Of a DNA stretch of 64,000 nt, positions 1,259 through 57,000 are shown one piece after another; the stretch's first letter is position 1, and the number at the start of each line of letters is the position of its first letter. Below the pieces are notes generated by a model. It saw only the letters and a list, made by a program, of their open reading frames with translations, was not told the DNA's origin and searched no databases. Position numbers and translations under genes: made by a program. This stretch comes from Moniliella sp. 'wahieum' (Eukaryota > Basidiomycota > Moniliellomycetes > Moniliellales > Moniliellaceae). The stretch lies in the NCBI GenBank assembly GCA_003971905.1, contig RSEE01000019.1, forward strand, positions 310,001 through 374,000, given 5' to 3'.

Positions 1259-3521
1259 ATGGCGTCCACCCTGTCACTGCCGCCGCCCCAACATGGCGCA
1301 CCGGATGATGCCGACGGGGCGCCGCCGCTCCTCCTCCCGCAACTGCTGCGCAACGCTTTGCCGCTGGCCAGCTCATCCTCCCGCCTCCCAGCATGCGCAC
1401 TCTGATCGACAAGACTGCCCACTACATCGCCCGCAATGGTCCTGGCTTCGAGGAATCCCTGCGAAAATCTGATGCCGAAAAAAAGGAGAATCGCCTCCCA
1501 TTTCTTCTCCCAACTGACCCATACCATGCGTATTTTTCCCGCACACTTGACCGTATTCGCCGCGGCGAGCCTCTCGATCCAGTCGGCATTCCTGGCGCGC
1601 CTGAGGGGCAGGCCTTGCAAGACCCTCCGCTCTTCAGCAACAGCAGCAGACGGAGGACGAGGATTCCGAGGTTCCTCCTCCTCCTTCCTCTCTTACGTCT
1701 GACATCCCGACCACCACAGCGCTCGACTTGTTAGTATCAGCTTCCTGTCCCTCGGGTCCCCACACATTAAGCGTTCCCAATTGCTGACCACTGTTTGGAT
1801 TGGAAACAGAGATGTGATCAAGCTTACTGCGCTTTTTACTGCGACGCGTGGACGCGAATTTGCAACTCATCTGCTCCAAACGGAGAACCAATCATACCAG
1901 TACGAATTTCTGCGCCCCTCCCACTCGCTCCACCCGTTCTACAATCGCTTGGTGGAACAGTACCAGCTCGTCATCGACGCGCCTAGTGCTATCCAAGTCT
2001 CTGCGCGATGTGCCCCCAGGTGCGCCCGAGGACACGCCTGTGGATGCCCGTCAAGGACCCGGCGCTGGTGGACAGCGCTCTCTTCTCGCCCAAGTCCGCG
2101 CTCGCACTGCATGGGAGCTCAAGACGAGGGAGCGAGCTCGAAAGGAACAGGACGAGGCCGCGCTGGAGCGTGAGGAGTTTGAAGTGGTGGACTGGCAAGA
2201 CTTTGTGGTTGTCCAGACTGTTCGGCTTTTCAGCGGAACCGAGGAGGACGAGGAACTTCCCCCTCCGTTGAGCAAGCGCGATCTGGAAAACATGACTCTG
2301 GCCCAGAAGAAGTTGGCCGCCATGGTGGGCGAAGAAGCTGCGGAGGAGCCGGGCACCGCGGTCGGCCGCGAGAAAGAGGATGAGGCGATGGAGATGAGCG
2401 AGGAGGAGGAGGAGGAGGGAGCCGTCGCCGAAAAGTCGCCCGGCTCCCGCACCATCTGGTCCTCCTCCCCCAGATCCTACGGCTCCTGTCGCCGATTCTG
2501 CCAAGGGACGCACCCAGGTTGTCAAGACAGCTTTCTCAGGCCCCATCCGTGTTCGGAAAGATTATGTCCCTGGCACCAAGCAACCCAAGGTGGAGCAGGA
2601 CACGATTTGTCCTGTTTGTGGGCAACGCGTTCCCCTTGACGAAATGGCGGAGCACGTTCGGATCGAATTGCTTAACCCTCTCTACCGTGAGCAGCGTGCA
2701 TCGCTTGAAGCGCGCCAGGCGCAGCACCAGACACTCCAGTCGGGCGCTGATCCTGTGGCTGCGCTCAAGGATTTTGCCGGGCAGCGCACCGACATCTTTG
2801 GTGGAGATGCCGACCCAGAGGCTGAGCTGAGGAGGCAAGAAGCGGCTGCCCAGCGTGAGCGCGAGGCGCGAGACCGCGAAGCCTTGGCATACGATGGCCA
2901 TTTGGGAAGCAAGACGGTGATTATGGAACGAGCCAAGCAAGCGGCGAAAGTGGAGGAGTCCCGCCGGACTGCGGCGGTGCCTTCGGCACCAGCCGAGATT
3001 GGTCCTCGGATTGGTCTGCCTGCCCGCCCCGCAATGGGGTTGCCCCCAGACCTGCCGACCTGCCTCCCAAGCCTCTCGACCTTCCACTTCCAGGAGCCAG
3101 TCTGCCTCCGGCACCTGTGCTCGGCAAGCACCCTGCCGACGGCCCAGCTCTGAATGAGCCCCCGGCCCAACGCCCTGTACCTGCTGCCCCCAACCTGCCC
3201 CCTGGTACGTTGGTTGCAGAGGACATGTGGACTCAGATGCATCCAGAAGCAGTGACAATTACCGTTCGGATGCCTGTCGCCCCGGCCGAACATGAAGGGG
3301 TGCCGGCTTGCGATGGGCGCACGATTGCGTTGGACCCTCTGCCGCCCCTGGCGACCATGTCGCAGGTCCGGCAAGTGCTGTATCAGTCTGTCCTGCATGA
3401 GGCGATTGGTATTGCCCGCATCCGTCTGTTTGTCCGTGGAAAGCCCACTACGCTCAAACAGACCTTGGCCCATTGGAACTTGACGGATGCGGACGAAGTG
3501 GCGGTTGTGATCAAATGGTGA
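1259..3521 (+). CDS. PRP21: Splicing factor 3A subunit 1 (Prp21/SF3a120)
   Basis: This is a nuclear U2 snRNP protein needed for branch-site recognition. Domains in order: a short N-terminus from ATG 1259; SURP1 (about 1375-1560: PPPSMRTLIDKTAHYIARNG, then PTDPYHAYFSRTLDRI); SURP2 (1816-2000: DVIKLTALFTATRGREF, then NQSYQYEFLRPSHSLHPFYN, LVEQYQLVI); an acidic/proline-rich middle with WELKTRERARKEQDEAALE and VVDWQDFVVVQTV; the SF3a1 segment GPIRVRKDYVPG, ICPVCGQRVPLDEMAEHVRI; and a C-terminal ubiquitin-like domain ending VAVVIKW at 3521. An intron runs from 1730 to 1809 (GTTAGT...AACAG) and splices to DLDVIKL. Frame changes near 1300, 1590, 2440 and 3060 interrupt the reading, but every domain is present in order, so the gene is probably functional. 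The ATG chosen is the first one in a coding-like stretch; it is one frame shift from SURP1. Confidence 0.9.
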
Positions 3522-5540: not shown

Positions 5541-8500
5541 ATGGCCGCCACATCCCGGTCCGACGGCAGCTACGTCCACCTCGATCACCTCTACGACTTC
5601 GACCTGCCCACCACGTCCTCCCCCGTCCCCGCCTCCATGACAACCGCCACCCGCCCCTGGTCCTCCATGCCGCGGCGGCCACCGCCGCTGCCGAGCCAAG
5701 CGCCACGGTTGCCATTCCCGTGCCTGTCGCCCCCTACGAGATTTGGATGGTGGCCCAGGCTCCAACGAGCAGTTTGCGCGTCTGCCCCCGTCCGTCGTGC
5801 TGCCCGAGGGCACCGACGCGCACGATGCTCAGGTCGTGCTCTGCGCCAACTTCCTCCGCTTCCTCGCCGACACCATCCACGCCCAGCGCGGCGCCCAAGC
5901 CGCTGATGTGCCTTCCGAGGTCAAGGTCCTGCAGCATGCTTGGTTTGCCTTCAACACTACCTTCCTGCACCTCGCCCCCACGGGCCAACCGGGAATGCAA
6001 TCGGTCGACGTGCACCACCTCACCGCTTCCCTCGACGTCGATGCCCGGACTGCCGTACTGCGCGCCTACCTCGACGCCTATGTCCTCCTTGATGCATTCA
6101 AGAACAAGGACCCGGCTCTGCGCGATATGCAGCTCCGACACCGCTTCTCTTGCGCCTGGCTCAGCAGGACAAGGCCAAGGTTTTTGGCGTCTTTGGTGGC
6201 CAAGGCACCAACGAGGTACGTCGGCTTTAAATAACTGCCCTGCCTCTCTTACTAACGTTATACCCCCCCCCCCCCCCACTTTTCCAGATCTACTTTGCCG
6301 AGCTTCAAGCCCTCTTCAACACGTACCGGCCACTCGTCGAGCCCGTGGTGCGCGATGCCTCTGCCCTGCTTGAGACACTCGTGGATGAGGCGCGTCAACA
6401 AGGCTTTGCGAACTTTTACTCCCAAGGCCTCGATGTTGCTGGGTGGTTGATGGGCACCACACCCCAACCCGACAATGCCTACTTTGTCCCTGCGCCCGTG
6501 TCGTTGCCGTTGATTGGTATGACCCAGCTGCTCCAGTACCTCTTGTGTGCCGTTGCTCGGGATTGAGCCCGGATGAGTTCCGTCGGACTTTCGTGGACAC
6601 TACCGGCCACTCGCAAGGTATCATCTCGGCCGTCGTTCTGTCTTCGTCCGATACGCCTGCTGCGCTTCACTCCAACATTGTGGCCGCCATCCGCTTGTTG
6701 TTCCACATTGGCAAGCGTGGCCAAGCGGCCTTCCCCTCGACCACGCTGGAGCCCAAGTTGGCCGACGACTCGGTTGCTGGCGGTGAGGGTGAGCCCACAC
6801 CCATGTTGTCAGTATCCGGCCTGAGGCGTGAGCAACTGGAAAAACACATTGAAATCACGAACTCGTTCTTGGAGGCCGACCGTCACGTGGCCATCTCTCT
6901 TTACAATGGCAAGCGCAACTTCACGGTCACGGGTTTCCCGCGCTCGCTCTTTGGTCTCGTTTCGTCTCTTCGCGAGATCCGTGCCCCAGAGGGTGCTGAC
7001 CAGACGAAGGTGCCATTCAGCCAGCGCAAGCCTGTCTTTAATGTTCGCTTCTTGCCCATATCAGTCCCCTACCACTCGGGTTACCTTACTGGTGTGACGG
7101 ACACATTGATCGGCGTTGATTACGCCCCCAATGAAGCTCCGTTTGAGCCTTCCAAGCTGGCGGTACGTGTAAGCAACACGACGACGGTTCGGATCTCCGT
7201 TCGCTCAAGGATGGGAGAGCCTTGCTTCGCTCCCTCTGCGATCAGATCTTCACCCAGCCTATCCACTGGGAGACGATTGTGCCCCCCGCTCCTGCGGTGA
7301 CGCACCTGATCGACTTCGGCACGGGCGGCATGTCGGGCATTGGCGTGCTTACAAGTCGCAACCTGGAGGGCAAGGGCGTCTATTCGCTCTTCCCCTCGGG
7401 ACGTCATGCCAAAGCGAGTGAACTGTACAATTTGACTCGGTGGGGCGGGAGGTTCGGTGGGCCCAGGCGTTTGCGCTCGGTTGGTCCGTACGCGTGAAGG
7501 CAAGTTGTTGTTGTGGACACGCCGATGTCTCGGTGCTGGGCAAGCCGCCACTGATGGTGCCGGGCATGACGCCCACCACGGTTCAAGCTGGTTTCAACAT
7601 TGCGACCATGAACGCCGGTTACCACATTGAGCTCGCCGGTGGTGGACACTTTACGCCCGCAGATGCTCCGTGAAAAGTGGAGGCCATCTCTCGGCCACCC
7701 GTGCTGGCGAAGGGCTGACGCTCAACTGTCTGTACATTAACCAGCGTCTGTGGAACGTCCAGTTCCCCTCTGGCAAGAGATGCGTCGTGAGGGCCTGCCT
7801 CTCCAAGGCTTCTGTGTCGCTGCCGGTATTCCAAGCCCCGAGAAGGCCAAAGAGATCATCGACTCGCTTCGTGCAAGTGGGATTGAGCATATCAGCTTCA
7901 AGCCTGGCTCGGTCGATGGCATCAAGCAAGTGTGCACTATTGCGGCAAAGAACCCGGACTTCTCGATTCTGCTCCAGTGGACTGGTGGTCGTGCTGGTGG
8001 TCACCACAGCTGTGAAGACTTCCACCAACCCATCTTGGCAACCTACGGCCGCATTCGTCAGCACCCCAACCTTGTTTTGGTCGCCGGCTCTGGCTTTGGT
8101 TCTGCCGAGATTTCTGGCCCTACCTCACAGGCGATGGTCGCGCGATCAGTTTGATGCCGAGCCCATGCCGTTCGATGGTGTCCTCTTTGGCTCCTGGGTC
8201 ATGACCGCAAAGGAAGGCCACGCCAACAACGAGATCAAGCAGCTGGTTGAGGCCAAGGGTGTCGAGGACAAGGAGTGGGAGGGCACCTTTACGCACCCCA
8301 CTGGTGGAATTGTGACTGTCACTTCGGAGCTGGGTGAGCCCATTCACAAGATTGCGACGCGTGGCATGAAGCTCTGGGCTGAGTTGGACAAGAAGTGCTT
8401 CACCCTGCCCAAGGAAAAGCGTCTGGCCTGGCTTGCCAAGAACAAGAACTGGGTTATTGAGCACCTCAATGCTGATTTCCAGAAACCCTGGTTCCCTGCT

Positions 8501-11500
8501 TATCTTGATGGAGAGCCAGCCCAAGGGGTGGAGGACATGACCTACGAGGAGACGATCCGTCGCGCTCTTCGCCTTCTCTACATTCAGGCCAAGCAGCGCT
8601 GGGTGGATGTGTCCTTGCGCAATTTCTTTGGCGATTGGCTGCGGCGAGTGGAGGAGCGTTTTGCCCACACACGGGCCAGCAAGCCTCTCTCCTGCAGTCC
8701 TACAGCCAATTGGACAAGGACCCAGCTGCGTTTGTCGACAAGTTTATCGGGGTCTTCCCTGAGACGACCGACATGCTCCTTTCGGCTGAAGATGTTGCGT
8801 ACTTTATTGTGCTGTGCAATCGCCCGACGCAGAAGCCCGTGCCCTTCATCCCCCTGTTGGACGCCAACTTTGCAGTGTACTTCAAGAAGGACTCGCTTTC
8901 GTACTCGGAGGACCTTGACTCGGTCTTTGACCGTGACCCTCAGCGGGTTGCCATTTTGCACGGCCCTGTCGCTGCTCGTCACAACACTCGTGCCAACGTC
9001 CCTATCAAGGAGATGCTTGGTGGTGTAGAGGACAAGCTTGTGGAGCTCATGCTTCAGCGCTTCTATGGCAACGACAAGAACAGTGTTCCCCAGGTGGATT
9101 ATCTGGCAAAGCACCCCTGGGTATTGATCTTGCGGAGCTTGCGGCGGCCCACAATGTGCGCGTTGACCAGGCGGAGAACAGGGTGGAACTTGGGTTGCCG
9201 TCCGATGTCAAGCAACTGCCTGAGCCGTCGCAGTGGTTGGATGCGTTGGCCGGGCAAGAGGCTTCTTGGCTGCGTGCTCTGCTCACCTCGGTCAGCTTGG
9301 TCCGTGGGCGGGGTACATTGACAACCCGCTTAAAACGCCTGCTCGCTCCCGGGCCAACCAGGTGGTGCAGCTTGCCCACGGTGCTGAAGGCCCTGAACGC
9401 CTGACTCTCTTGGGTGCCTACCGTTCCTACGGTCCGTCAGACAAGCACACCCCCATTGTCGACATCACCTTTGCGCCGGCCACCAAGGCCATCACTGTCG
9501 TTATCAACGAGCTTCGTCGCGGCGAGCTTGTGCCGCTTACGATGGAGTTTGTCTACCACCCGGAGCAACCGGGTGCTTTGATTCATGAGCGCCTCGAAGG
9601 GCGTGAGCGTCGTATCAAGAGTTCTACTGGAAGTACGTATATATTATTCATTCCGAAGCCGTTCTTATCTTGATCATCTGCTGACTTACCATTTCTCAAG
9701 GCTCTGGTTCAACGAAAATGCCCTCCTCGTCGGCTCTCGCTAGCAAGGAGGTGTTCTCCAATGAGCCCAAGACGCTCAATGGCGAGTCCATCCAAAAGTT
9801 CTGCCAGGTCGTGGGCAACAACAATGTTGTCTACCAGGTGGGTGGGCAAGCGCCTATGGACTTTGCCATTGTTGCTGGCTGGGAGGCCATCATGCAAGCC
9901 TTGACGGCGAAGATCGACGGTGACTTGCTTAACCTCGTGCATCTTAGCAACAGCTTCGAGATGGTTCCTGGCGCCTCTGGCCTCCGCGTGGGAGACAAGT
10001 GCAAGGCTGAGGCTCGGGTGCTGAGTGTCAGATCTCCGCCACTGGCAAGTCGGTTTCAATTCAAGGCAAGGTCCTGCGACAGGAGGCGAGGAGTGGAAGC
10101 CCGTTATTACGGTCGTATCTTCTTCTTCTACCGTGGCAAGTTCAGCGACTATGGCTCCTGCTTCGAACATCAGCGTGACCGCTATTCGTTTGAGATCAAG
10201 TCCAAGGCTGAGGCTGCTGTTCTGATGGCCAAGGAATGGTTCTCCTGGACCGCCCCCTCACCCCTCGAGTCGGGCACGGTGCTGTATTTCGATGTGGACA
10301 ACACTATGCGCTATCAAAACGCTACGACCTTGCTGATGTGCAGGCTCAGGGGGTGTCTATATCAAGGACTACAAGACGACCTTATCCAGGTGGGTGTGGT
10401 GGAATACGAAGCCGACTCGATCAGCTACGGCAACCCGTTTCTGAGTACATCAAGCGCGCGGTGGCAGCTCTCAGATGCCGCTGCGCCTCGACCATGGCTA
10501 CACCTTGAGGGCGAACGGACCTGAGCAAGTTTACTGCTCCGGCGACCAACGAGCCCTATTCCCTGGCGTCGGGTGACTTCAACCCCATCCACATCAACCC
10601 CTACTTGCCGACCTGGCTTCGCTCCCTGGTACCATTACCCACGGTCTCTTTTCGTCGGCGGCCACGCGCCGATTTGTGGAGGATATGGCGGGCGAGGGCC
10701 ATCCGATCGTGTCCTCTTTCAAGGCCCAGTTTGTTGGCATGGTCCTCCCCGGGGACGAGTTGACGGTTACTTTGCGCCACATCGCTATGCACGGCGGCAA
10801 TAAGGTCATTTCTGTCCAGACCGTCAACCAAGCGGGCGAGAAGGGCTCGAGGGCGAGGCTGAGGTGCCAGCCACCACGGCCTACGCATTACTGGGCAAGG
10901 CTCGCAAGAACAGGGGAGGGGATGGACTTGTACTCATCTTCGGACACGGCCAAGGCGCTCTGGGATGAAGCCGATCAGCACCTGAAGGCCACCATGGGCT
11001 TTAGCATCCTCGAAATTGTGAAGGACAACCCCATGAGCAAGACGGTGCACTTTGGCGGGTGTGCGCGGCATGCGATTCGCGACCGTACAGCAGCATGATG
11101 TACGAGTCGACGGATACTGAAGGCAAACCGGTCACCCTCCCGCTTTCCCTGAGATTACGCTGCGCTCGCAGAGCTACACCTTCCAATCGCCCAAGGGGCT
11201 TCTCTACGCCACTCAATTCGCGCAGATTGCGTTGGTGCTCGTGGAGCTGTCGCCTACCGCGATATGAAGGACCGTGGCCTGATCCGTCCGACTCGGCATT
11301 TGCCGGCCACTCGCTGGGCGAGTACGCTTCCCTGGCCGCTGTGGCCTCGGTGCTGCAAGTTAAGGACTTGGTCGATGTGGTCTTCTACCGTGGCCTGACC
11401 ATGCAGCGTGCCGTCAAGCGTGACGCCGAGGGTCGCAGCTCGTATGGTATGATGGCCTGCAACCCGACTCGTGTTGGCCCCTCCTTCTCGGACGCGGCCT

Positions 11501-13330
11501 TTGCCGAGGTGGTGGACTCGATCGGGCGCGTGTCGGGCAAGTTGATCCAAACTGTCAACTTCAACGTCTCGAGCCAGCAGCTGGTCGTTGCTGGTGAGCT
11601 GGTTGCACTTCTGACGATGACCAACGTGCTCAACTACATCAAGCTGCAGAAGATTGATCTCAACCGCTTGCTGGAGACGATGAGCCCCGAAGAGGTGCGA
11701 GAGAAGCTGGAGGAGATTGTCTCGATGGTGTTTGCTGAAGCGGAAAAGGAAGCTGCCAAGGCCCTCTCCAACTTCAACGCGGTTCGCCACCATCCCTCTG
11801 CCCGGTATTGATGTGCCCTTCCACTCGCGCTACCTTATGCCGGGTGTGGCCCCTTCCGTGCCTACCTCTCCAAGCGGATCAACGTGGATGCCATTCGTCC
11901 TAACCTGCTGGTGGGCAAGTACATTCCCAACTTGATTGCCCAGCCGTTTGAGCTTTCCAAGGCGTATGCGGAGACGATTGTCAACCAGACGGGCTCGGGT
12001 CGCTTGGCCAAGGTGGTCAAGGAGTGGGAGAAGGAGGGCTGGGCATCGCCGGAGAAGCAGCAGCGGCTGACAACGTTGTTGGTTGTTGAGCTCTTGGCTT
12101 ACCAGTTTGCTTCGCCGGTGCAGTGGATCAAAACGCAGGAGCTGCTGTTTGGCAAGCCCTTCCAGATGGAGCGCTTTATCGAGTTTGGCCCCAGCCCCAC
12201 CCTGAGGCATGGCGGTGCGAACCCACAAGGCATTCTACAAGGCGTCGGACGAGGCCCGTGGACTGCGCCGTGAGCTGCTTTGCTCTTCTAAGGACAAGGA
12301 AGCGCTCTACTATGCCTTCACCGACCCCGAGGCGGACGAGGCGCCGGTGCAACAGAGGAGGCGGCCCCTGCGCCCGTGGCTGCTGCACCTGTGGCTGTGG
12401 CCGCTCCCGTCGCCGCCGCGCCCGCTGCTGGTCCTACTCAGGAGGTGCCGACGAGCCGGTCAAGGCAATCGAGACGCTCATGTCCATCCTGGCTCAGAAA
12501 CTGAAGAAGCCGCTCGACTCGATTCCCAAGGACAAGGCCATCAAGGAAATGGTCGGAGGCAAGTCGACGATGCAAAATGAGATTGTGTCGAGCCTGATCG
12601 AAGAGTTTGGCATGGTCCCCGACCGTGGAGAAGAACTGCCGGTGGAAGAGCTGGGCGCCGCGCTTCAGATTGGGTACAAGGGGACTCTGGGCAAGTACAC
12701 CTCGGGCCTCGTGTCGCGGTTTGTGGCGTCCAAGATGCCTGGTGGCTTCAACCTGTCGGCCGTCAAAGCGCACCTGTCCAATCGTGGGGGTTGGGTGCCG
12801 GACGGAGCGAGTCGGTGCTGCTAGCGGCTGTGGCTGACGAGCCGGCCAAGCGGTTGGGGTCTGAGGGCGAGGCCAAGGCCTGGCTCGACTCGGTTGTCCA
12901 GGGCTACGGAAGGCGGTCGGGTGTCTCCTTGAGCCAGGGCGGCGGTGCGCGGGCGGTGGTGCTGCGACGGGCGGGGCGGCAATCTCGTCGGAGGAGCTGG
13001 ACAAGCTGCGCGATGCAGAGCACCAACATGCTCGGCGGCAGATTCAGCTGCTGCAGCGCTACCTGGGTGTGGACGCGCGGGCCGAGGGTCGCGCTACGGA
13101 TGCGGTTCGCTCGGAACTGGCGCAGGCCCAGGCTGAGCTGGATGCGATTGCGGCCGAGCATGGCGAGCTGTACACGAACGGCATCCGCCCAAGTTTGATG
13201 CGCGCAAGGTGCGCACCTACTCTTCTTCGTGGAACTGGAGCCGGCAGCAGGCGCTCCTGCTTTACTATGACATTCTCAAGGCCGTCTGGGGCTGGAGAAT
13301 GGGCGGCTGACGTCGCTGGAGCACGAGTAA
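5541..13330 (+). CDS. Fused beta-alpha type I fatty acid synthase, lacking KR-KS-PPT
   Basis: This encodes a cytosolic fungal fatty acid synthase. Order of domains: an N-terminal region; acetyltransferase (GGQGTNE at 6195-6215, active-site GHSQG with Ser codon 6611-6613); FMN enoyl reductase barrel ([14 protein letters not shown] near 7550, [13 protein letters not shown] near 7980); dehydratase regions with the MaoC-type DFNPIH motif (His codon 10590-10592); malonyl/palmitoyl transferase (GHSLGEY, Ser codon 11311-11313); then, without a break, the alpha-subunit start ([17 protein letters not shown] near 12085), one acyl-carrier domain ([10 protein letters not shown], pantetheine Ser codon 12564-12566) and the linker [18 protein letters not shown]. 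Homology ends at GRLTSLEHE and a TAA at 13328-13330, so ketoreductase, ketosynthase and phosphopantetheinyl transferase are absent. Introns: 6216-6287 (with a C15 run) and 9633-9700 (FYWK|LWFNE). At least twenty frame changes cross the gene. Start from the first ATG after the leader. Truncated pseudogene, split gene or assembly collapse are all possible. Confidence 0.9.
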
Positions 13331-13907
13331 GGCGGCTGCCCGTGGCAGCGATGATGGGTTTCGACGTGTGGTTAGGAATATCATGGCATGTGGTTCGGAC
13401 TGCTGGAGATGTTGCATAGAGGTGGATCTCAGGTAGGATGCGGCTCCGAGCCAAGGGAGGCAAAGGGAACAGGCAGTGAGCGACTGGGGAGGATGAGACC
13501 AGCTTCCAGTCAAACTGAATAACCCAAGTGGGAGGTGTAGTGTAGTGGGAGGTGTGCAGAGGACATATGAGTCTATGGCGTGGGGGCCCCATGGCCTCAC
13601 GCGGTGAATCGGTACCCTGCCCTGCGCATGCCGGCGCACGGTGGGTGAAACGTTGAAAACAAGCCAGTGCAGAAGGATTAGAAATGGCACACTGCCCCCC
13701 CGGCGGCCGCCCGTCGAGACGCACCCCTTCGCCGCAGAGGGGCAGCGCCTGTGTGGCCTGCTGCGTTCCCAGCACCGGCTGGGGAGCAGTGTCCAGCCCA
13801 GCGGCCGAGCCGGGTGGGGCCGGGCCAGGCGGCCGGACGGATAGCCGCTGCTTGCTTCTGCGTCGCGCTCCACCACCCCCCTCCCCACCCTTCTTGCCCC
13901 CTCCAGC
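13331..13907. other. Spacer between truncated FAS and SDH3
   Basis: No ketoreductase or ketosynthase sequence is seen after the FAS stop. The DNA turns into non-coding sequence with a CT-rich leader just before the SDH3 ATG. A GAAACGTTGAAAAC word lies near 13647. Confidence 0.6.
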
Positions 13908-14602
13908 ATGAACTCGATCCGCACCGTTGGTCTGTCGCACTCGATCCTGGCGCGCCGCGTGCTTGTTGGGGCTGGTGCTGGGGCGCGTGTGGCCGCCGTG
14001 CGCCCGCTCGCGCTGGCGCCCCTCCTGGCTCGCCCGCTCTCGACCCAGACGCCAGCCAAGAAGCCCATTGCGATCCAGGAGTTGTCCCCGGCCCAGGAGC
14101 TGCAGCAGCTCGATGGCCAGCGCAACCGCCGTCCCACTTCGCCTCATCTCGATATCTACCAGCCGCAGCTGACCTGGCTCATGTCGGGTCTGCACCGTGC
14201 CACGGGTGTGCGACTGTTGGCAGTACGTCCTGCTTTCCTCCTTCTGTTTGGCGGGCCTTGCTGTTCTCCTGTGCCTCTGCCTCCCCCCCCTCCCTACCCC
14301 CATGACTAACGTTACCGTTACTTCAGTTCTGTACGCCTACTCGATTGTCTATGGCTTTCGCCCTGTTTGGTGTGCAGGAATACGTTTCGCCGGAGGTGGT
14401 TGCGATTGCGGGCTCGCTGCCGTTCTGGTTCAAGACGCTTGTCAAGGCCCCGCTGGCTGCCGTGGTGAGCTTCCATGCGTTCAACGGTCTGCGCCACCTG
14501 CTGTGGGACACGGCCGTGCTGACCATCCCGGGCGTGTACAAGACCGGGTACGCGGTTCTCGGCGCGACGGCGCTGTCGACGATCGCTTTGCTTTTGGTGT
14601 AA
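13908..14602 (+). CDS. SDH3: Succinate dehydrogenase cytochrome b560 membrane anchor
   Basis: This is a subunit of mitochondrial complex II that anchors the catalytic dimer in the inner membrane and helps hold heme b and ubiquinone. The N-terminus is rich in Arg/Ala/Leu without acid residues (LARRVLVGAGAGARVAAVR), as expected for a mitochondrial presequence. The family signature follows: RPTSPHLDIYQPQLTWLMSG, LHRATGVRLLA, and after the intron SFHAFNGLRHLLWD, where the His of SFH is the heme-ligand position. The C-terminus ends in a last membrane helix (ALSTIALLLV). The intron is 14223-14326 with a CATGACTAAC branch site. The spliced frame is open, but just after the intron the other frame reads YAYSIVYG, closer to the family, so two compensating indels may lie there. 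Length about 195 residues, normal for the family. Confidence 0.9.
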
Positions 14603-26204: not shown

Positions 26205-26345
26205 GCCCTGGGCCTGAGGCCTGAGGTCAGGCCGGTCAGGCCTGAATATGCATGATGCTGGCGCTCAGCGCTCTTGCATCACGCGTCAGCCATGCATGCA
26301 TCGCATGTTAATGTTATGCATCATGCATCATGCATCATGCTCCAT
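26205..26345. repeat. CTGAGGCC and CATGCATCAT repeat block
   Basis: From 26205 to 26245 GCCTGAGG and GGTCAGGCCTGA words overlap, and from 26250 to 26345 CATGCATGCAT and repeated CATCATGCAT words follow. The block lies about 200 bases before the ATG of the lipid phosphatase gene. Confidence 0.6.
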
Positions 26346-26554
26346 GCGTCGCCAGCATTCCAGTGCACAGCGCTCGCCGTGCGCCACACTTGCACCCTGC
26401 GCCACCCACTGCTGGTCAGTTTCCGTGTTGCGGACATGCGCGGTGGGCCAGCTGGGCCATTTTTGCGCGTGTTCCGCGGAAGCGGCCGCGGGCTGCGGCC
26501 TCCCCCCATACCCAGCCGCCGGGAGCCCTTCTCCCTCCTGGCCAAATCCTCTCC

Positions 26555-28324
26555 ATGGGCGACCTCTACACCGAGCTCACCCAGTCGGCCTCGACCGACA
26601 TCGGCGTGCTGCCTGTGTCCGTCTACGATGTTGCTCTGCCGGCCTGGGCCGCCTGGGTGCGCTCCCACCTCCTCGCCCGTCTGGCGGGCGAAAGTGCATG
26701 GCTTGCCGCCCACCAGCGTTCCATGCGCGCGCGCCTTGGCCGCAAGGGCGACATCTTCTTTGTCTACACCTCCCTCCTCGGCACCCACAGTTTCTTCCTC
26801 CTTTTCCTCCCGCTCACCTTCTGGCTCGGCGCGCCTTACAACGGCCGCGGCCTGGTGGCTGTCACCGCGCTTGGGTGCTGGCTTGCGTCCTGGGTCAAAG
26901 ACTGCCTCTGTCTCCCACGCCCCTACGCCCCGCCTGTTCGCCGTCTTGCTCTCGGCACCCATCACCACGAGTATGGTTTCCCCTCCACCCACACTGCCAA
27001 TTGTGTGGCCATGGCCTTGTACGGCTGGTTCCTCCTTCGTGATCGCATCCACGCCGCCTTGCAGCCCGACTCTGCCCTCCCCATTGTCCCTGCGTTTATC
27101 CAGCCTGTGCTTGGAGTTGCGCTTTTGCTGTACTCCTTGAGCGTCAGCTACGGCCGTCTGTACGCTGGAATGCACAGCTTGATGGATGTGATCGGTGGAG
27201 CAGTGGTGGCTGTGTTGGTGGTTGTGCTGCAGCGGGTTGGCCAGCCCTGGCTCGAGACGCAGCTGCTGAACCCCTCCTTGGCTATTCCCATTCTCCTCAA
27301 CGGGCTTACCCTCTTGCTCGTCTCGCTACATCCCCAGCCGGTGGATGATTGTCCCTGCTTTGAAGATGCAGTCGCTTTTATGGCCGTTCTGGCAGGGGTC
27401 AACACAGGACGATGGTTTGGCCTTCGCGCGGGCTGGCTTGCCTTGAATGACGATCCGCTTCTGATGCGCAGCAAGATGGATCTCTTTGAGCCGCGTACCA
27501 ATTCTCGTCTTACGTGGGGGGATAGTATGGTGGCACGCATAATTGAACACGCTCTTGATCTGCCGCGTCACTTGTTCAACCCCCTTTTGGGTGTCTCTTC
27601 TCAAATTGGAGAGCCTTGGGCCGAACGAGCGTATACGCTGGTCCCCATCCTCATCTTCCTGTTGGGTACCCTACACCTGTTGGTGGTACGTCTGGTCGTC
27701 AAATCCCTTGCCCGAGCGATCCTGCCTCCACTCTTCCACCGCGCTCAGAAAGCTACCCATGGTCTCATCGTCTTGCACCGCCGTTACTACGTCCCGGCGC
27801 GCGAGTACGGAGGTATGGTGCCCCCCCAACCCCTGAGCCCTACCCCGTCGATTATGATGGACGAATTCGAATGGCGTGCGCCGACACCGGTCCCTCCCAC
27901 CAGTCCTCCTATGGACTCAGTTGCGCCTTCTCCCACCCCATCTCCCCCATGCTTCTCTCTCTCTCCCCTCGCGCCCAAGGGCACGACTGAGGCCCAGGCC
28001 GAAGGCGCTGAGGGCTTGCGCAAACGACACCCCAGTCCCCCTGCAGTACTGCGGGGTGCGAGCGACAACGCGGGTGCCGAACCTGTGCTCGAACCCAAGC
28101 TCGACTCGGAACAACCTACTGTGCCACACTACGATGTCGATGGTACGTATCTATCCATCACAGCTTCCTGCTTCCTGCTTGATGGCACAATTGGAGACTG
28201 ATACTGACTTGTCGGGAATGGACTAGTGTTGATCAAGTACCTTACCTATGTCTCCATTGGCTTTCATGCCGCCTTGGTGGTTCCCGTGCTTTCTCAGCGC
28301 TTTGGATGGCTACCACTGCCCTAG
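26555..28324 (+). CDS. Long-chain-base-1-phosphate phosphatase (PAP2 family)
   Basis: The enzyme should dephosphorylate sphingoid-base phosphates at the endoplasmic reticulum, like yeast Lcb3/Ysr3. All three PAP2 phosphatase motifs are intact: KDCLCLPRP (motif 1), YGFPSTHTANCVAM (motif 2) and SVSYGRLYAGMHSLMDV (motif 3, catalytic His). Several membrane helices surround them (FFLLFLPLTFWL, VLGVALLLYSLSV, GAVVAVLVVVL, LVPILIFLLGTLHLLVVRLV). A Pro/Ser-rich loop of about 110 residues (27810-28140) precedes a last exon that adds a helix (YVSIGFHAALVVPVLSQRFG) and ends at 28324. The intron is 28143-28226. The start at 26555 (MGDLYTELTQ) is the first ATG close to the conserved part; the frame is open further up to 26330 but that part is repeat-like. 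About 560 residues, no frame break. Specificity for sphingoid bases is inferred from family resemblance. Confidence 0.88.
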
Positions 28325-29859: not shown

Positions 29860-32800
29860 CTAGGCTCCCTTGATGACAAACCGACCAGGTAATAGAGCTG
29901 GCCACAGAACTTGAAACGCTGCCAAGCCTGCAACCGACCAGAGCAACACGCCCATGTACGTTAACTGCACCTTCGTCCCACCAACGTTGATGATGCAGAC
30001 CGCGAGGGCAATGTTGAGGATCAGCCAGGCGAGGAGCACGTTGGTTCGGACAGCGGCATAGTAGTCCTTTTGCCGAGCCTCGTGATCGACCTTGGGCGTC
30101 TCGGGGGCGGCTGCGAATGCAAGACGGTACAAGCGTCGTCGTACAATTCGTCAAGGTCCTTGGGATCTGTTGGAACGGCCACTTCCACTGTGCCTCCGGC
30201 ACCGCCCTTGACCACACCCAAGTCGGTTGCAACAGAGTCGGAGCCCTTGGTGCCCCAACTGAAAGAGAAACATGATGTTAGAGCGGGCACACAGAAAAGA
30301 GAGGGTAAGGAAGAGACAGGTAACGCACCTCACATCGAGTGTTGGAGAAAGCATACACGTTGATCACGTTGATCATCGACGGCGCCATAAGGACATACTG
30401 AACCAACGAGGTGAACATATGGAACGGGTCAAGCCACAGCAGGCTGGCCAAGAGCCAAATACCGTAAGTAGATGAGAAGGAAACGACCACGTCAATAAAC
30501 ACCATGCTGGACCCTAACGACTTGTGCTCCTTATTCAGCTTGACAATGCTCAGAATGGCCAACGCAATGGCAGCAGCTGTCATGTAGGCAGTTAGAACCG
30601 CAAAGACAATCATAGCGCCCATGTAGGCCCACTTATTGCCCGCCGGCCGGTTACCAAGGGACAAGATGAAGCAGAACAGGAGCACGGCGAGGTACACGTA
30701 GGTGAGGATGATGTTGGGTACCTTTAGTCCATGCACCTCCTCGCTCACCGCCCGCGTGAGGATCCAGAAGGCAATGAAAAAATTGGAGAGGGAGAAGAAA
30801 GAGAAGAAGAGCGTAATGGCCTGGTAAATCATCTCAATGTGGAGGAAGAACTTGCGCCAGAAAGAGTGGGCCGAGCGATAGATGTAGTAAAATTTGACGA
30901 TCGAGTGAAGACTGGCGAGAAGAAGGAACCGTTGAGCCAGCGACGCCGGGCCAATCAGTTCCGCGACGCTGTCAGGCACATCTGTCACGCCCTGTGCAGT
31001 CTTGACATAGTGCAGGATCCATTGTGAGCCCCGTTTGGCGACTAGTTCCCAACACAAGTACGATCCTCCGCCAAGTACATGTTGCTTGTGAAAATGTCGG
31101 CATCGGCGTCGCCCCCATGCAATGTTTCGCCCTTGAAGTACTCCTTCAGCGGGCCCGCACCTGTCTCGTCGTTTTGCAGGGCCACATACCGATAGGCGGA
31201 AAAGGCGCCCGGAAGGACTGTGATGTACCCGAAAGCAGATTCGAGCGGCTTATCCAGGATGTTGCTCATCTTGTACTCTGGTTGTGAAGAGTCGTTAGAA
31301 TGGTGCAAACGTGAAGAGGAATGACCGACGTACCAAAGTTCTGAGTTCCTACCAGGGATTGAGCAAAGCACTCCAATATTTGCCCTTGAGAGCAACAATC
31401 TCTCCGCAAGCCCCCCCACATTCTTGTTCACATCGAACGCTTTCCAAAGGTGATAGATGGAACGGCTGCGAGGCATAGTTCCCACATCAATCAAGATGCA
31501 TACACTGGGCTCAAGCACGCGGCCGAATGCGTTGAAGAACCAGCGATGTGAATTGATCTTCTTCTGGTTGCGCTCCTTGAGGCAGAAGATGATCTGGACG
31601 GGGACGATTTTGTCCTCGGAGGTCCTAAAGCGAAGCTTCTCATCAATCGAAACCTGGGTGGTGTACTCGTAAATATGAGCAGTGACAGGCTTGCCGTTGA
31701 CCACGTTCTTGGCTACGCCTTCTTGGTACACCCCCATGGCAGCCAAGACAGCGAGGGTGCGCGAATTGATTTTCTTTCGGCCATCGCTGACAATGCAGAC
31801 CACCACCTTCTTCCATCCGGCCGGACCCCAGGTCTTAGAATTCTTACGGCTGCATAGATGCGCAATGTTCTCCATCACGTGGTGCATGGTGCGCGTAAAG
31901 AGCACTCGTCCTCGTTGTACATGGTGAGGCAGATGAACAGCTCTGTCTTACGGGCAGGCTCGTATAGCGATTGGCGCAATTCGTACAACTCATTGGAAAA
32001 GTTGTCCGGCTCGCAGGTGGCGGCTGTATAGCGCATGCGAGTAAACTCTGCTGCCTTATCATCGGCACACTTGGCCAGAAGCTTGGGGGCACGCGGCAGT
32101 CAAGAACTAGATTCCCTGGAACAAATCGACCTTGCGCATCGTCTTGTACCGCCGCGGCACCCTTTGCGGAATGCGGCCATAGCGGATGCCGCCGGTCTCC
32201 TCTCCCTCTTCCATAGCCACCGGGTTGTACGCGCCAGGTACTTGGGGGACTTCCTCTTCCTCTTCCTCCTCTTCCTCCTCTTCTTCCTCAGAAGGGTTGA
32301 AGCACGCCCGCCCATGGGGTACTGGTGATACTGGTCATCATAGGTTGATTCAGGCTCTGGCGGTCGGCTAGTGTATGAAGGTCATCGTCACCATAAGGCT
32401 TGGAATACGCCTCATCACCGCCGTAATCGTACTGGAGCGGGTCGTGGATAGACTTGGCGAGGGGGCATAGGAGAGGTGCCGATTGCAGGCTGGGTGGCCG
32501 GAGGAGCAGTATTATCGTAAGCATGGTTTGGTACTGAGCTGCGTCGTACGGCTGGCAAAAGGGTCGTCGTAGCTGTAGCTGGACACGGGCCTGGGGGGTC
32601 AGCGTCATAGGGATTATTCAGTTGAACAGGGGGGGAGTATGGGGCGACGGGAGCGACGGGAGCTGTTGGGGCTGGTGCGGGGGGCTGTGGAGTGGCCGGG
32701 GCCGGGAGGGGGGTGTAGGGGGGCTGGTAGGGGGCATAGGCCGCTGGGGTGGGAGCCGGCGGGACAGGGGTGGGAGCCCAGGAAATGCCGGCCGGTGGCG

Positions 32801-46489: not shown

Positions 46490-48797
46490 ATGGCGCCGCG
46501 CACCCTCTACCAGAAGATCTTTGACGACCATCTCATCCGGGAGGAGGAAGATGGCACCTGCCTTATCTACATTGACCGCCACCTTGTCCATGAGGTAACT
46601 TCGCCGCAGGCATTCGAAGGCCTGCGTCTCGCAAATCGTCCTGTGCGTCGCACCGACTGCACTCTCGCCACTGTCGACCACAACATTCCTACTAGCAGCA
46701 GGAAAAAGTACGTGGACACGGCCTCGTTTATCGAAGAACCCAGCTCGCGCACCCAAGTCGTCACCCTCGAGCACAATGTCAAGGAATTCGGCCTTACCTT
46801 CTTTGGCATGACCGACGATCGACAAGGCATTGTCCATGTCATTGGCCCCGAGCAGGGCTTTACCCTCCCTGGTGCTACAATTGTCTGCGGTGATTCGCAC
46901 ACCTCTACCCATGGCGCCTTTGGTGCGCTAGCCTTTGGCATTGGTACCTCCGAAGTGGAACACGTCCTCGCGACGCAGACCATCATCCAAAAGCGGGCCA
47001 AAAACATGCGCGTCCAAGTCGATGGCGAGCTTGCGCCTGGAGTCAACTCGAAGGACATTGTTCTTCATGTTATTGGACTTATTGGTACCGCGGGGGGCAC
47101 TGGGAGCGTGATTGAATTTTGCGGGACGACAATTGAGAAGCTGTCGATGGAGGCGCGCATGTCGATCTGCAACATGTCTATTGAGGGAGGCGCACGTGCC
47201 GGTCTCATTGCTCCCGATGAGGTCACATTTGCGTACTTGAAGAACCGCCCGCTCGCTCCCAAGGGCGAAGAGTGGGAGAAGGCGGTGGCATACTGGAAGT
47301 CACTTCCTTCCGACCCAGACGCCAAGTACGATGTGGTGGTCAAGATTGATGCTAAGGACATTCCTCCCACTGTCACCTGGGGCACCTCGCCTCAGGATGC
47401 GATCAGTATTACCGCATCGGTTCCCGACCCGGCCAAGGCTAAGGACGAGACACAAGCTGCTGCCTGGAAGCGCTCACTAGCCTACATGGGTCTCGAGCCT
47501 AACACGCCCATGGAGCAAATCAAAATCCACAAGGTTTTTATCGGTTCGTGCACCAACTCGCGTATTGAGGATCTGCGCAGCGCCGCTCAGGTGCTCCATG
47601 GCCGCAAAGTGGCGGAGGGAGTGTACGCCATGCTCGTGCCCGGATCGGGCTTGATCAAGAAGCAAGCCGAGGCTGAGGGCCTGGACAAGGTGTTCAAGGC
47701 GGCTGGGTTTGACTGGCGCGAGGCTGGCTGCTCCATGTGTCTGGGCATGAACCCGGACCAGCTCGAGCCTGGGGAACGCTGCGCCTCTACATCCAACCGT
47801 AACTTTGAGGGCCGGCAGGGACCTGGGGGTCGCACTCACCTCGTCTCTCCTGCCATGGCTGCCGCTGCGGCTGTGACGGGGCATCTGACTGATGTGCGTA
47901 CTCTCCTTGCCGGCTCGCCCAAGACTGCCGCGGCTCATGCCCAAGTGGAGATCCTGGACGGCAAGACCTTCCTTCCCCCTGCGGAGGCCCCACCCACCCC
48001 ACAGCCGGAGGAGCCGCAGGCCCCTGTGGATGCACCCCCGAGTCAAACGGATGAGGACTGTTTGGAGGATGTACCAATCAGTATGGAGACCACGGCAGGC
48101 AGTGGACTCAAAACGTTCACCACCCTCTCAGGCATTGCAGCCCCGATTGAGCGGGCCAATGTGGACACGGACTTGATTATCCCAGCCAAATTCCTCAAGG
48201 TGATCACTCGTTCGGGTTTGGGAGGAGCACTGCTCAATACTCTCCGCTACAACAAGGACACTGGGGCGCCAAACCCCGATTTTGTCCTCAATCAAGAGCC
48301 CTGGTCACATGCCAAGTTTATTGTGGCCGGGCCTAACTGGGGCTGTGGTTCGTCGCGTGAGCATGCGGCCTGGTCCTTGCTTGACTTTGGCATCCGTGCC
48401 GTCATTGCGCCTTCAATCGCCGATATTCACGCCACCAACCTGTCTAAGAATGGGATTGTGGGTGTTGTCCTTCCCCAAGAACAAGTGGACCGGGTTATGG
48501 CGGATGCCAAGGCTGCCAAGACGGTGACGGTGGATCTACCGAACCAGGTGGTGGTACTCGAGGACGGTTCTAGTTAGTTTCCCCTTCTCCATCTCGCCAT
48601 TTACCAAGCACTGTCTTATCAATGGTTTGGACGACATTAGTCTCACCCTCCAGCACGAGAAGTCTATCGAGTCCTTTGAGAAGACGCGCTCTTTGAAGTA
48701 CCCTTGGCTCAATGGCGTGGGCTACAAGGGCCCCGGCCCCAAAGCCATTCCTATCATCTCGGGCGATGCTGTCAAGAAACAAAAAATTGACTGGTAA
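46490..48797 (+). CDS. LEU1: 3-isopropylmalate dehydratase (isopropylmalate isomerase)
   Basis: The enzyme interconverts 2- and 3-isopropylmalate in leucine synthesis and needs a [4Fe-4S] cluster. It is the fused fungal form: a LeuC-type large domain ([60 protein letters not shown]) with cluster cysteines in [13 protein letters not shown] and [11 protein letters not shown], then [14 protein letters not shown]; a Pro/Glu linker; and a LeuD-type swivel domain ([50 protein letters not shown]). The frame is open to 48577. Beyond it, in the +1 frame, [20 protein letters not shown] and [13 protein letters not shown] run to a stop at 48795-48797, which is the true C-terminus, so one indel lies near 48575. 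No intron is seen. Length about 765 residues, usual for fungi. Confidence 0.95.
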
Positions 48798-54007: not shown

Positions 54008-57000
54008 ATGCCGACAGGAGACAATCCCGTTGGTCTGAACCAGTCATCTACTGCTGGCAACACTTCGTTACGGGCACCGAATAGCCCAACCATCAAACGC
54101 AAACCCGTTCCACCTAGACTGCAAACTGCCATTGACGGGGATGTAGACGAGGCCACCCCGACAAAGAATGCCAAGATTATGTCGATACGGACTGCCTCAA
54201 CCACAGTGTCTTCTCCACCTCAGGCATTACGGGGGGGGCATACGGCAAACGCGCCAGAGCATACGGGTCCTACCACTGGCACAAATGTTTCTACTGCCGG
54301 ATCTCCCTCAGAAACAACTCCATCAAACACCCAGCTACCCTCTCGTCTGGTCAAGTGCGCCGTGGTGGACATGGTCGCACCCCGAGCAGTGAAAGTGCTA
54401 AGGGGCTACAGAATTTTGTCTTCCCCAGTCAAGGCCGTGTTACACCTGCTGACATGGGTGGGCGGAGTACTCCGGGATCTATGAACGCTGCCCCTGGCAC
54501 GACGACACCTGAGCCTGGCGCTTACTTCACCCCGCCTCGGAGTGCTGCAGGATCGATAAACTCCTTTTATGACGCTCCGGCCACTCCCGGAAACGGAAGC
54601 CGTCCAGCTTCTGTTGTTGTCCCAAGCAGCCCCGTGTCTCCGTCTATCAACTCTAAATTCTCTCCTGCTTCTCCTACCCGGACCATTTTCCCAACTTCAC
54701 CTGGCTCCCCATCGTCATTGACCCGGCAAGCAATCAATCGGAACGCAAGTGTTGCTCGCAGCGCCTCTTTGGGACATGGATTCCACCGTCCTCGCCACTC
54801 ATCCGGTACAGGCCATATGCCTACGGTCCAAGAGGGTTTAAACCGTGCACGTAGTCATGGTCATACCCGCCGCGTCTCTCAGTACGATGACCCGGTGAAC
54901 CACGGTCTTATGAGCTTAATCGGGTTTGATTCAGCCTATCCCTCCCCTGCTCTCAATGCCCACACATCCACCAAACGGATAACCTCGACGCACGGTGGCT
55001 CTGCCGTACCATCCCATCCCTCTTCAGTAACTGGATCAAGCGACAAACTCGACAGCCCATTTGCGGCAGAGCTTCCCCAGCCTGGAAGCCAGAAGGTGAG
55101 CAGCAGCGGCTCGGGCAGCGGCTCGGTGCATCACAGTTATGGCCACGAAGACCATGGTACAGGCTACTCCTCTCCTATCCGATCCAGCATCAACTCAAGT
55201 GGTGAACCACACTCCAACACTCTAGTCGCCTCTTCTGATGGGAGTACTTGTGGCAAGTACCACCCCATTACGCGTGATGGAACTGGGAAGATGGGTTTCC
55301 GTGACATTATCGACATTGCAACCATGAGTCCTCTGTCCTTCGACCGTCTGGATGAGGTGGAATCGGACGACGACCTTCATGATCCTGAAAAACTAGAGGA
55401 TGCGCTTCACCGAAAGATTTCCTTGCGCAGTTGGCGCGCAGGCCGTCGCAAGACCGGACATGAATACCGTGAGGCTATCAAAGCGGAGGAGAATCGGGCC
55501 GAGAAGGATGATGTCGCCGGCCCCCCTCCTGGCAAAAAAACTGAGGCAAAGAGGGTGGGAATTCGGGCCTTCCTCAATGTTGGAAGCATGCTGATCGTGA
55601 CACTGGGCGTACTCATGCTTTTTGCTGGCTACCCAATTTACAGTCACTACAAACTGTACAGCTATCACAAGTACGGTGCTTACCAAATTGGAGGTACTAA
55701 TGCATCGGGCCAAGTAGGGCAAGTCCCTGGCATTCGCACTCCTCTCATCGACCCTGACACTCCCAAAGATGCCTACACCCGCGTGGGACAAGATGGTGTT
55801 ACCAAATACGAGCTGGTCTTCTCGGATGAGTTCAACACCCCCGGGCGCAGTTTTACCCGGAGATGTAAGTCAATCTTGGTTCAAAAGCGCAACCAGAAGT
55901 ATTATACTGACACGATTTCTTTCCACAGGATCCCTTTTGGGAAGCCGTCAACCTGCACTACTGGCGTGAGTACAGCTTTCCCCTGCATATACCCGACTCG
56001 AACACGATACTAACCTATACCTCGATTGCGAACAGAACGAATAATTACGAGTGGTACGACCCGGCGGCGGTCACTAACCCAAGACGGGGCACTTTCCATC
56101 ACTCTCAGCCAACACCCGGACCACGACCTCAACTTCCGTGGTGGTATGATCCAATCGTGGAACAAGTTCTGCTTTACTGGCGGAATGATTGTGGTTAGTG
56201 TTCGCCTTCCTGGCCAGGCTGGTGTTGGGGGGCTATGGCCCGCCATCTGGATGATGGGTAATCTGGGACGTGCCGGATACGGTGCATCTCTTGACGGCAC
56301 CTGGCCCTACACTTATGACTCGTGCGATACAGGTACCCTGGCAAACCAGACAGATCCAGCTACTGGTATGTACCTCTTTTCCATATTTTAGCCACCACGT
56401 GCCTTTCTGACATTCAAACCACTCTTTTACTACAGGTTTACCCAACAGCACGACTCTTGGAGATTGTGGTTTTAACAGTCAGTTCCAGAGCAAGGCCTTA
56501 AGCTATCTGTCCGGCCAGAAGCTTTCTTCGTGCACTTGCCCTGGCGAGGACCACCCTGGACCGCGGCACAAGGATGGTACCTTCAAGGGTCGTGCTGCAC
56601 CTGAACTTGACATTTTCGAGGCTCAGATCAGCGACACACATGAGATGACCGTCAGCCAGAGTCTGCAACTGGCTCCCTTCAACGCCTATTACAAGCTATC
56701 GCAGCCAGCGGAGCTGTTCAGCAACGCTTCTTGGGTCAACACGTATACCGGGGAGCTGACGCAGCAAGCAGCCTCTGGTATTACGCCAACGGACCAGACG
56801 GCCATACAATATCTTCCCGATGGTTCCTTGGGCGGGTTCTCTGAGTATGGTGTTGAGTATGTTCCGGGGTATGACGGATTTATCAAGTGGAACGCCGGCG
56901 GAAAACCTGCATGGATGATCAACTCAACCCACCTCCAGGCCGACCTATTGGCTGGTATTTCGCGTCGACCGGTACCCGAGGAACCATTGTACATTATTAT

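What the first reader, a model, noticed from the sequence alone, without database searches (positions are those of the whole stretch)
13180..13345. Fused FAS ends right before the ketoreductase
The beta-alpha fused fatty acid synthase keeps AT, ER, DH, MPT, ACP and the alpha linker SSSWNW, then homology stops at GRLTSLEHE plus TAA. KR, KS and PPT domains, over 1000 residues in known alpha subunits, are absent from the 570-base spacer that follows. Either the organism has split its synthase at a new place (with KR-KS-PPT as a separate chain), or this is a truncated copy, or the assembly is broken here. A natural split at this linker would be a new FAS architecture.
Basis: partly seen in the sequence, partly recalled or inferred. 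Interest (0 to 1): 0.75.

Follow-up and report, generated by a model that had tools for sequence, protein, structure and literature searches.

The report
Fatty acid synthase split in two
A smut-related fungus makes its giant fatty acid synthase as two separate proteins, cut at the very place where the distantly related Cryptococcus group also cuts it, so the gene has probably been broken there twice in evolution.

Summary
The beta-alpha FAS gene in the window (chain 1: AT-ER-DH-MPT-ACP plus half of the helical domain FAS_I_H) ends at TAA 13328-13330 before any KR. It is neither a truncated gene nor an assembly break: the other haplotype (C14) stops at the same codon, and Tilletiaria anomala has the same chain 1 with a homologous tail. 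The missing half is a separate gene (chain 2: rest of FAS_I_H, KR, KS, PPT) on four other contigs, under strong purifying selection (dN/dS 0.033-0.046 between homoeologs). No match spans the joint. The architecture is not new: it is the 'Tremellomycetes-type' FAS, split in the 4-helix bundle; yeast FAS rebuilt with that split works (PMC6972935). What my limited searches did not find in print is this split in Ustilaginomycotina, where that paper gives a one-gene FAS. On a 36-row tree window and Tilletiaria nest inside Ustilaginomycotina beside one-gene relatives, and one common split clade with Tremellomycetes is rejected (AU p 0.0001). The two lineages carry unlike end pieces. So the same loop, GRL|T(T/A)VDRE, was probably broken independently. 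Interesting, but a new member of a known kind.

The parts
5541..13330 (+). FAS chain 1 gene (AT-ER-DH-MPT-ACP-first half of FAS_I_H); probable ATG at 5541, stop TAA 13328-13330; two probable short introns near 6230-6290 and 9632-9701; many frame changes in this assembly
   Evidence: start by comparison with the N-terminus of P0240
6605..6628 (+). AT motif GHSQGIIS (motif recalled)
12450..12821 (+). ACP domain (Fas_alpha_ACP)
13015..13280 (+). first half of FAS_I_H (profile positions 3-91 of 203)
   Evidence: C19:323015-323280 in two frames
13301..13330 (+). end of chain 1: GRLTSLEHE and stop TAA
   Evidence: same stop on C14
13331..13907 (+). spacer between chain 1 and SDHC, 577 bases, no FAS alpha domain seen
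13908..14599 (+). SDHC-like gene (succinate dehydrogenase membrane subunit), next gene after the split end

Best explanation
This fungus, near Tilletiaria (Georgefischeriales, Exobasidiomycetes), has a type I fungal FAS encoded by two separate genes that arose by fission of a one-gene ancestor in the loop GRL|T(T/A)VDRE of the FAS_I_H / 4-helix bundle before KR. Shown: chain 1 ends there and chain 2 (rest of FAS_I_H, KR, KS, PPT) begins there, with own stop and own start, on different contigs. Inferred: the two chains meet by completing the 4-helix bundle between them, probably during translation, and then build the ordinary barrel, in which the ACP of chain 1 serves KS and KR of chain 2 and is loaded by the PPT of chain 2, as in Tremellomycetes-type FAS. 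Inferred from the tree and the end pieces: the fission is independent of that in Tremellomycetes.
For: FAS_I_H matches 8 places, the first half only on C14 and C19, the second half only on C43, C120, C16, C4, none spanning the joint. Chain 2 genes; with Tilletiaria chain 2 as query 31 of 31 matches fall on those four contigs, with Tilletiaria chain 1 27 of 27 on C14 and C19. PDB alignments meet at Thermomyces alpha 424-426. Tilletiaria has the same pair with homologous tail and head. dN/dS between chain 2 homoeologs 0.033-0.046. Tree: window+Tilletiaria 100/100 inside Ustilaginomycotina 100/100, Tremellomycetes a separate clade, 2 changes of the split, one split clade rejected with p-AU 0.000126. 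End pieces of the two lineages unlike. Yeast FAS rebuilt with this split complements and assembles (PMC6972935, passages).
Against: No RNA, protein or assembly data were available. The window copy has many frame changes although LEU1 on the same contig is intact, so uneven sequencing error is assumed, not shown. The exact place of the split clade within Ustilaginomycotina is weakly supported (90/89; 92). Chain 1 has one live locus and chain 2 two, so balance of the chains is unexplained.
Confidence: 0.85

Rival explanations
1. Assembly break: a one-gene FAS was cut at 13330 by the assembler and KR-KS-PPT was placed elsewhere.
For: The assembly has many one-base errors.
Against: Both haplotypes (C14 and C19) stop at the same codon and go on collinearly (SDHC next on both, by eye); the four chain 2 copies start alike with their own ATG far inside contigs of 194 kb to 1.3 Mb; Tilletiaria, a different genome, shows the same pair.
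Confidence: 0.01
2. Truncated extra copy: chain 1 is a broken duplicate and a complete FAS works elsewhere.
For: 52 frame changes in the window copy; a decayed second copy of chain 1 really exists on C127.
Against: No other match to chain 1 domains in the genome: ACP 4 of 4 and ER-helical 4 of 4 matches on C14 and C19, Tilletiaria chain 1 27 of 27 on C14 and C19; chain 1 haplotypes dN/dS 0.162. The search scores only the best candidates.
Confidence: 0.02
3. The split is real, but the window's own allele (C19) is decaying while C14 serves.
For: 52 frame changes against 14 on C14 (biased towards C14); LEU1 on C19 is intact.
Against: Between the haplotypes dN/dS is 0.162, like the 0.113 and 0.174 between haplotypes of chain 2; indels are denser in the next 3.1 kb (58) than in the gene (66 in 7.7 kb).
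Confidence: 0.08
4. The split is shared by descent with Tremellomycetes: an old split, re-fused in other groups, or a transferred gene.
For: The break lies at the same loop within about four residues in both.
Against: The gene tree follows the species groups and rejects one split clade, 355 log-likelihood units, p-AU 0.000126, which speaks against transfer of chain 2; end pieces are unlike; an old split would need repeated exact re-fusion in the one-gene groups, and the outgroup rows are joined at this site.
Confidence: 0.08

Closest known systems
Tremellomycetes-type FAS (Cryptococcus, Tremella, Kwoniella; PMC6972935)
   Same: AT-ER-DH-MPT-ACP on one chain, KR-KS-PPT on the other; cut at the same loop of the 4-helix bundle
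   Different: Different lineage and a separate clade on the tree; unlike tail on chain 1 and unlike head on chain 2
Tilletiaria anomala UBC 951 proteins P0121 (2646 aa) and P0002 (1382 aa, named thiolase-like protein)
   Same: Same two chains, homologous tail GRLGLExGRL and head; 74% identity over 99% of the scored part of chain 1 and over all of chain 2
   Different: Both lie on a contig of 167,012 bases, perhaps the same one; in the window's genome the genes lie on different contigs
One-gene (Ustilaginomycetes-type) FAS of Ustilago, Sporisorium, Tilletia, Pseudozyma flocculosa
   Same: Closest relatives by sequence after Tilletiaria
   Different: All domains on one chain of about 3,700-3,960 residues (rows)
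Rhodosporidium-type and Ascomycota-type two-gene FAS
   Same: Two-gene fungal FAS
   Different: Cut elsewhere: in the SBS sheet, and inside MPT

Membership tests
Tremellomycetes-type two-gene FAS (as an architecture) | ACP on the chain with AT, ER, DH, MPT | tested here: met
   P0121
Tremellomycetes-type two-gene FAS (as an architecture) | KR, KS, PPT on the second chain without ACP | tested here: met
   Pfam on the Tilletiaria ortholog P0002; Pfam was not run on the full window chain 2
Tremellomycetes-type two-gene FAS (as an architecture) | cut within the 4-helix bundle, first helices kept on chain 2 | tested here: met
   FAS_I_H cut at position 91-103; same alignment column as Tremellomycetes; the bundle itself is taken from PMC6972935, no structure was modelled
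Tremellomycetes-type two-gene FAS (as a line of descent) | common origin with the Tremellomycete split | tested here: not met
   separate clades, p-AU 0.000126
Tremellomycetes-type two-gene FAS (as an architecture) | co-translational assembly into an active barrel | not testable with these tools
   needs expression and purification
Ustilaginomycetes-type one-gene FAS | all domains on one chain | tested here: not met
Ascomycota-type two-gene FAS | cut inside MPT | tested here: not met
   MPT runs on into ACP on chain 1

The most novel reading that the evidence does not exclude
The FAS gene was broken independently at the same loop of the 4-helix bundle in Tremellomycetes and in Georgefischeriales, and again at another place inside MPT in Exobasidiales. 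That would mark the few loops where a nascent FAS chain can be cut without harming co-translational assembly: natural support for the engineered yeast splits.
Probability: 0.8. Interest if true: 0.5.

Novelty: new member of a known kind. Interest (0 to 1): 0.4.

Why it matters
Published schemes tie each FAS gene layout to one fungal group. A second, apparently independent break at the same few residues suggests that fission sites are set by how the chains fold together rather than by ancestry. It gives a natural replicate of an engineered split in a lineage with close one-gene relatives, so that assembly before and after fission can be compared. It also shows that the Tilletiaria entry named 'thiolase-like protein' is the second FAS chain.

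Tried and rejected
Rejected or rated low: broken assembly, truncated copy, decaying allele, shared descent with Tremellomycetes (see rivals). Trans-splicing of the two genes into one message was put aside: each chain has its own end or start shared with Tilletiaria; no data bear on it directly. Microstromatales proteins (Sympodiomycopsis P0011/P0312, Microstroma P0015, Jaminaea P0303) first looked like another split, but the letters after ...FFHPVS differ among models and the stretch before GHSLGEY is missing from the Sympodiomycopsis pair, so gene-model error at an intron is more likely. For some searches I picked 35 of the 239 proteins then held by hand, plus the window; none was dropped afterwards. 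One search used the mixture model (quick search); and its AU test used LG+G4. Wallemia moves between the two trees. The AU test came after I had seen the quick tree, but the group is defined by the split.

Led nowhere: paper searches (0 papers each); some searches listed 15, 2, 1 and 2 papers, of which I read passages of three (PMC7300031, PMC4393869, PMC6972935). PMC4456111 is not held. Bukhari 2014 was seen only as a citation. In one search I meant to score the ACP end but gave the ER region; the list was still useful for Tremellomycete chain 1 ends. The query there was shortened so that most proteins of about 3,900 residues fell outside the length range; this is as the tool describes it.

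Full report
What is in the window. The window is contig C19:310001-374000 of a 69.5-Mb assembly in 223 contigs. From about 5541 to 13330 it carries a fungal type I FAS gene with AT, ER, DH, MPT and ACP in order, then the first half of the FAS type I helical domain, Pfam FAS_I_H. It ends at TAA 13328-13330; the next gene, SDHC, begins at 13908. Against a read-through taken mostly from the C14 allele, the window copy has 52 frame changes, 44 of them one-base steps, and two probable short introns; the C14 allele has 14. C14 is 95.7% identical over 12.2 kb. Of 66 indels between the two in the gene 54 are of one base, and indels are denser in the 3.1 kb that follow (58). I take them as sequencing error; that LEU1 on the same contig is intact speaks for uneven error or, less likely, for decay of this allele.

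The other half exists. FAS_I_H matches 8 places in the genome: positions 3-103 on C14 and C19 only, positions 92-202 on C43, C120, C16 and C4 only. The second set belongs to genes that begin MSS... and carry KR, KS and PPT; on C16 the gene runs from 685339 to 689579. With Tilletiaria chain 2 as query, 31 of 31 matches fall on those four contigs; with Tilletiaria chain 1, 27 of 27 fall on C14 and C19. C16/C4 and C43/C120 are two allelic pairs (94.7% and 95.4% identical in the longest alignments) that are about 91% identical to each other over 4.25 kb. dN/dS in the four comparisons between the pairs is 0.033, 0.043, 0.036 and 0.046, with 1025 to 1159 codons compared of 1388; within pairs it is 0.113 and 0.174, and 0.162 for the chain 1 haplotypes, where sequencing error weighs more. 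On C43 an ELO elongase gene lies head to head with chain 2 (Pfam, L002); C16 and C120 hold similar DNA at the corresponding place.

Where the cut lies. The C14 allele of chain 1 aligns to the Thermomyces alpha chain up to residue 426 and chain 2 of C16 from residue 424. In one-gene relatives the place reads ...YDIIYGRLTTVDREITARC...; chain 1 here ends ...[22 protein letters not shown] and chain 2 begins ...GPSSALSRELTAKC. In Tremellomycetes chain 1 ends ...FYDIIHGELDPSTVF... (11 of 11 named rows printed, and 2 unnamed, with small variations) and chain 2 begins at or just before RREL/RREI (12 of 12 named rows printed; one unnamed model starts later). The cut is therefore at the same loop within about four residues, but the added end pieces are unlike.

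Not new in kind. PMC6972935 (passages) describes the Tremellomycetes-type FAS, whose chain ends intertwine in a 4-helix bundle; it reports that yeast FAS rebuilt with that split complements a FAS-deficient strain and forms barrels, that loss of helices 10-12 of chain 2 abolishes complementation, and it gives Ustilaginomycetes-type FAS as a single polypeptide. PMC7300031 (passages) speaks of six gene-topological variations and of splitting as a late event. PMC4393869 (passages) says that Cryptococcus neoformans carries ACP on FAS1 and that Ustilago has one large protein.

New lineage, apparently a separate event. The nearest named relative of both chains is Tilletiaria anomala (Georgefischeriales, Exobasidiomycetes), with the same two chains, a homologous tail (GRLGLExGRL) and a homologous head; unnamed sequences come closer (P0001 92%, P0240 90%) but are partial. 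Of the 9 other Ustilaginomycotina on the tree 7 are one-gene and 2 are gene models that still join ACP to KR. On 36 rows window and Tilletiaria form a clade (100/100) within Ustilaginomycotina (100/100), Tremellomycetes form another (100/100), the split needs two changes, and holding the 9 split rows together costs 355 log-likelihood units (p-AU 0.000126) (one search agrees). The exact sister group is weakly supported (90/89). I found no paper on a split FAS in Tilletiaria or Exobasidiomycetes in the open PMC set; subscription papers, among them Bukhari 2014, were not available, so absence from print is a weak claim.

A relic helps to date the event. LEU1 has four near-identical copies (C19, C14, C13, C69), which suggests two haplotypes of two homoeologous sets. 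A second chain 1 is a relic on C127 next to an SDHC homoeolog: pieces of the ER region lie directly beside ACP-FAS_I_H pieces at 38-40% identity, and KGRLGLDGGRLT can still be read by eye in one frame. If that reading is right, the tail, and so the fission, is older than the duplication. On C198, which has the other SDHC homoeolog, no relic was listed. The genome thus seems to keep one live chain 1 locus and two chain 2 loci.

How it probably works. Shown: domain content, split point, selection on chain 2. Inferred: the chains complete the 4-helix bundle together, probably during translation, and build the usual barrel; the PPT of chain 2 loads the ACP of chain 1. Motifs seen by eye with names recalled, not tested: GHSQG, GHSLGEY, FNPIH, GGKS on chain 1; YSESK, GACATG, GVGIDVE on chain 2.

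Noticed in passing
L035 (C127:150601-160600), reverse strand, about 152.0-153.1 kb of C127: Decayed second copy of chain 1 beside an SDHC homoeolog, with ER and ACP-FAS_I_H pieces directly joined (a large internal loss).
   Followed up: partly
proteins P0244/P0010 (consecutive locus tags in an Adiantum nelumboides entry), P0246/P0006 (contigs of equal length), P0245 (Exobasidium rhododendri), P0243: FAS of Exobasidium-like fungi seems split inside MPT: the first chain ends ...TLDKI(A/S)EFA in 4 of 4 rows printed, the second begins MS(V/I)LQKADPA; by recall this is not the ascomycete cut.
   Followed up: partly
proteins P0010 and P0244, named Adiantum nelumboides (a fern): Fungal FAS genes in a fern assembly, probably contamination by an Exobasidium-like fungus.
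   Followed up: no
window 46490-48577 and C14, C13, C69: LEU1-like gene in four near-identical copies: the 69.5-Mb assembly seems to hold two haplotypes of two homoeologous sets.
   Followed up: partly
C16, C4, C43, C120 (L002-L004, L011-L018): Chain 2 is kept at two homoeologous loci while chain 1 has one live locus; on C43 chain 2 lies head to head with an ELO elongase gene.
   Followed up: partly
window 2398-3518, 26330-28201, 31042-31905 (-), 54355-56013: Ordinary neighbours by Pfam: PRP21-like splicing factor, PAP2 phosphatase, chitin synthase, SKN1/KRE6.
   Followed up: no
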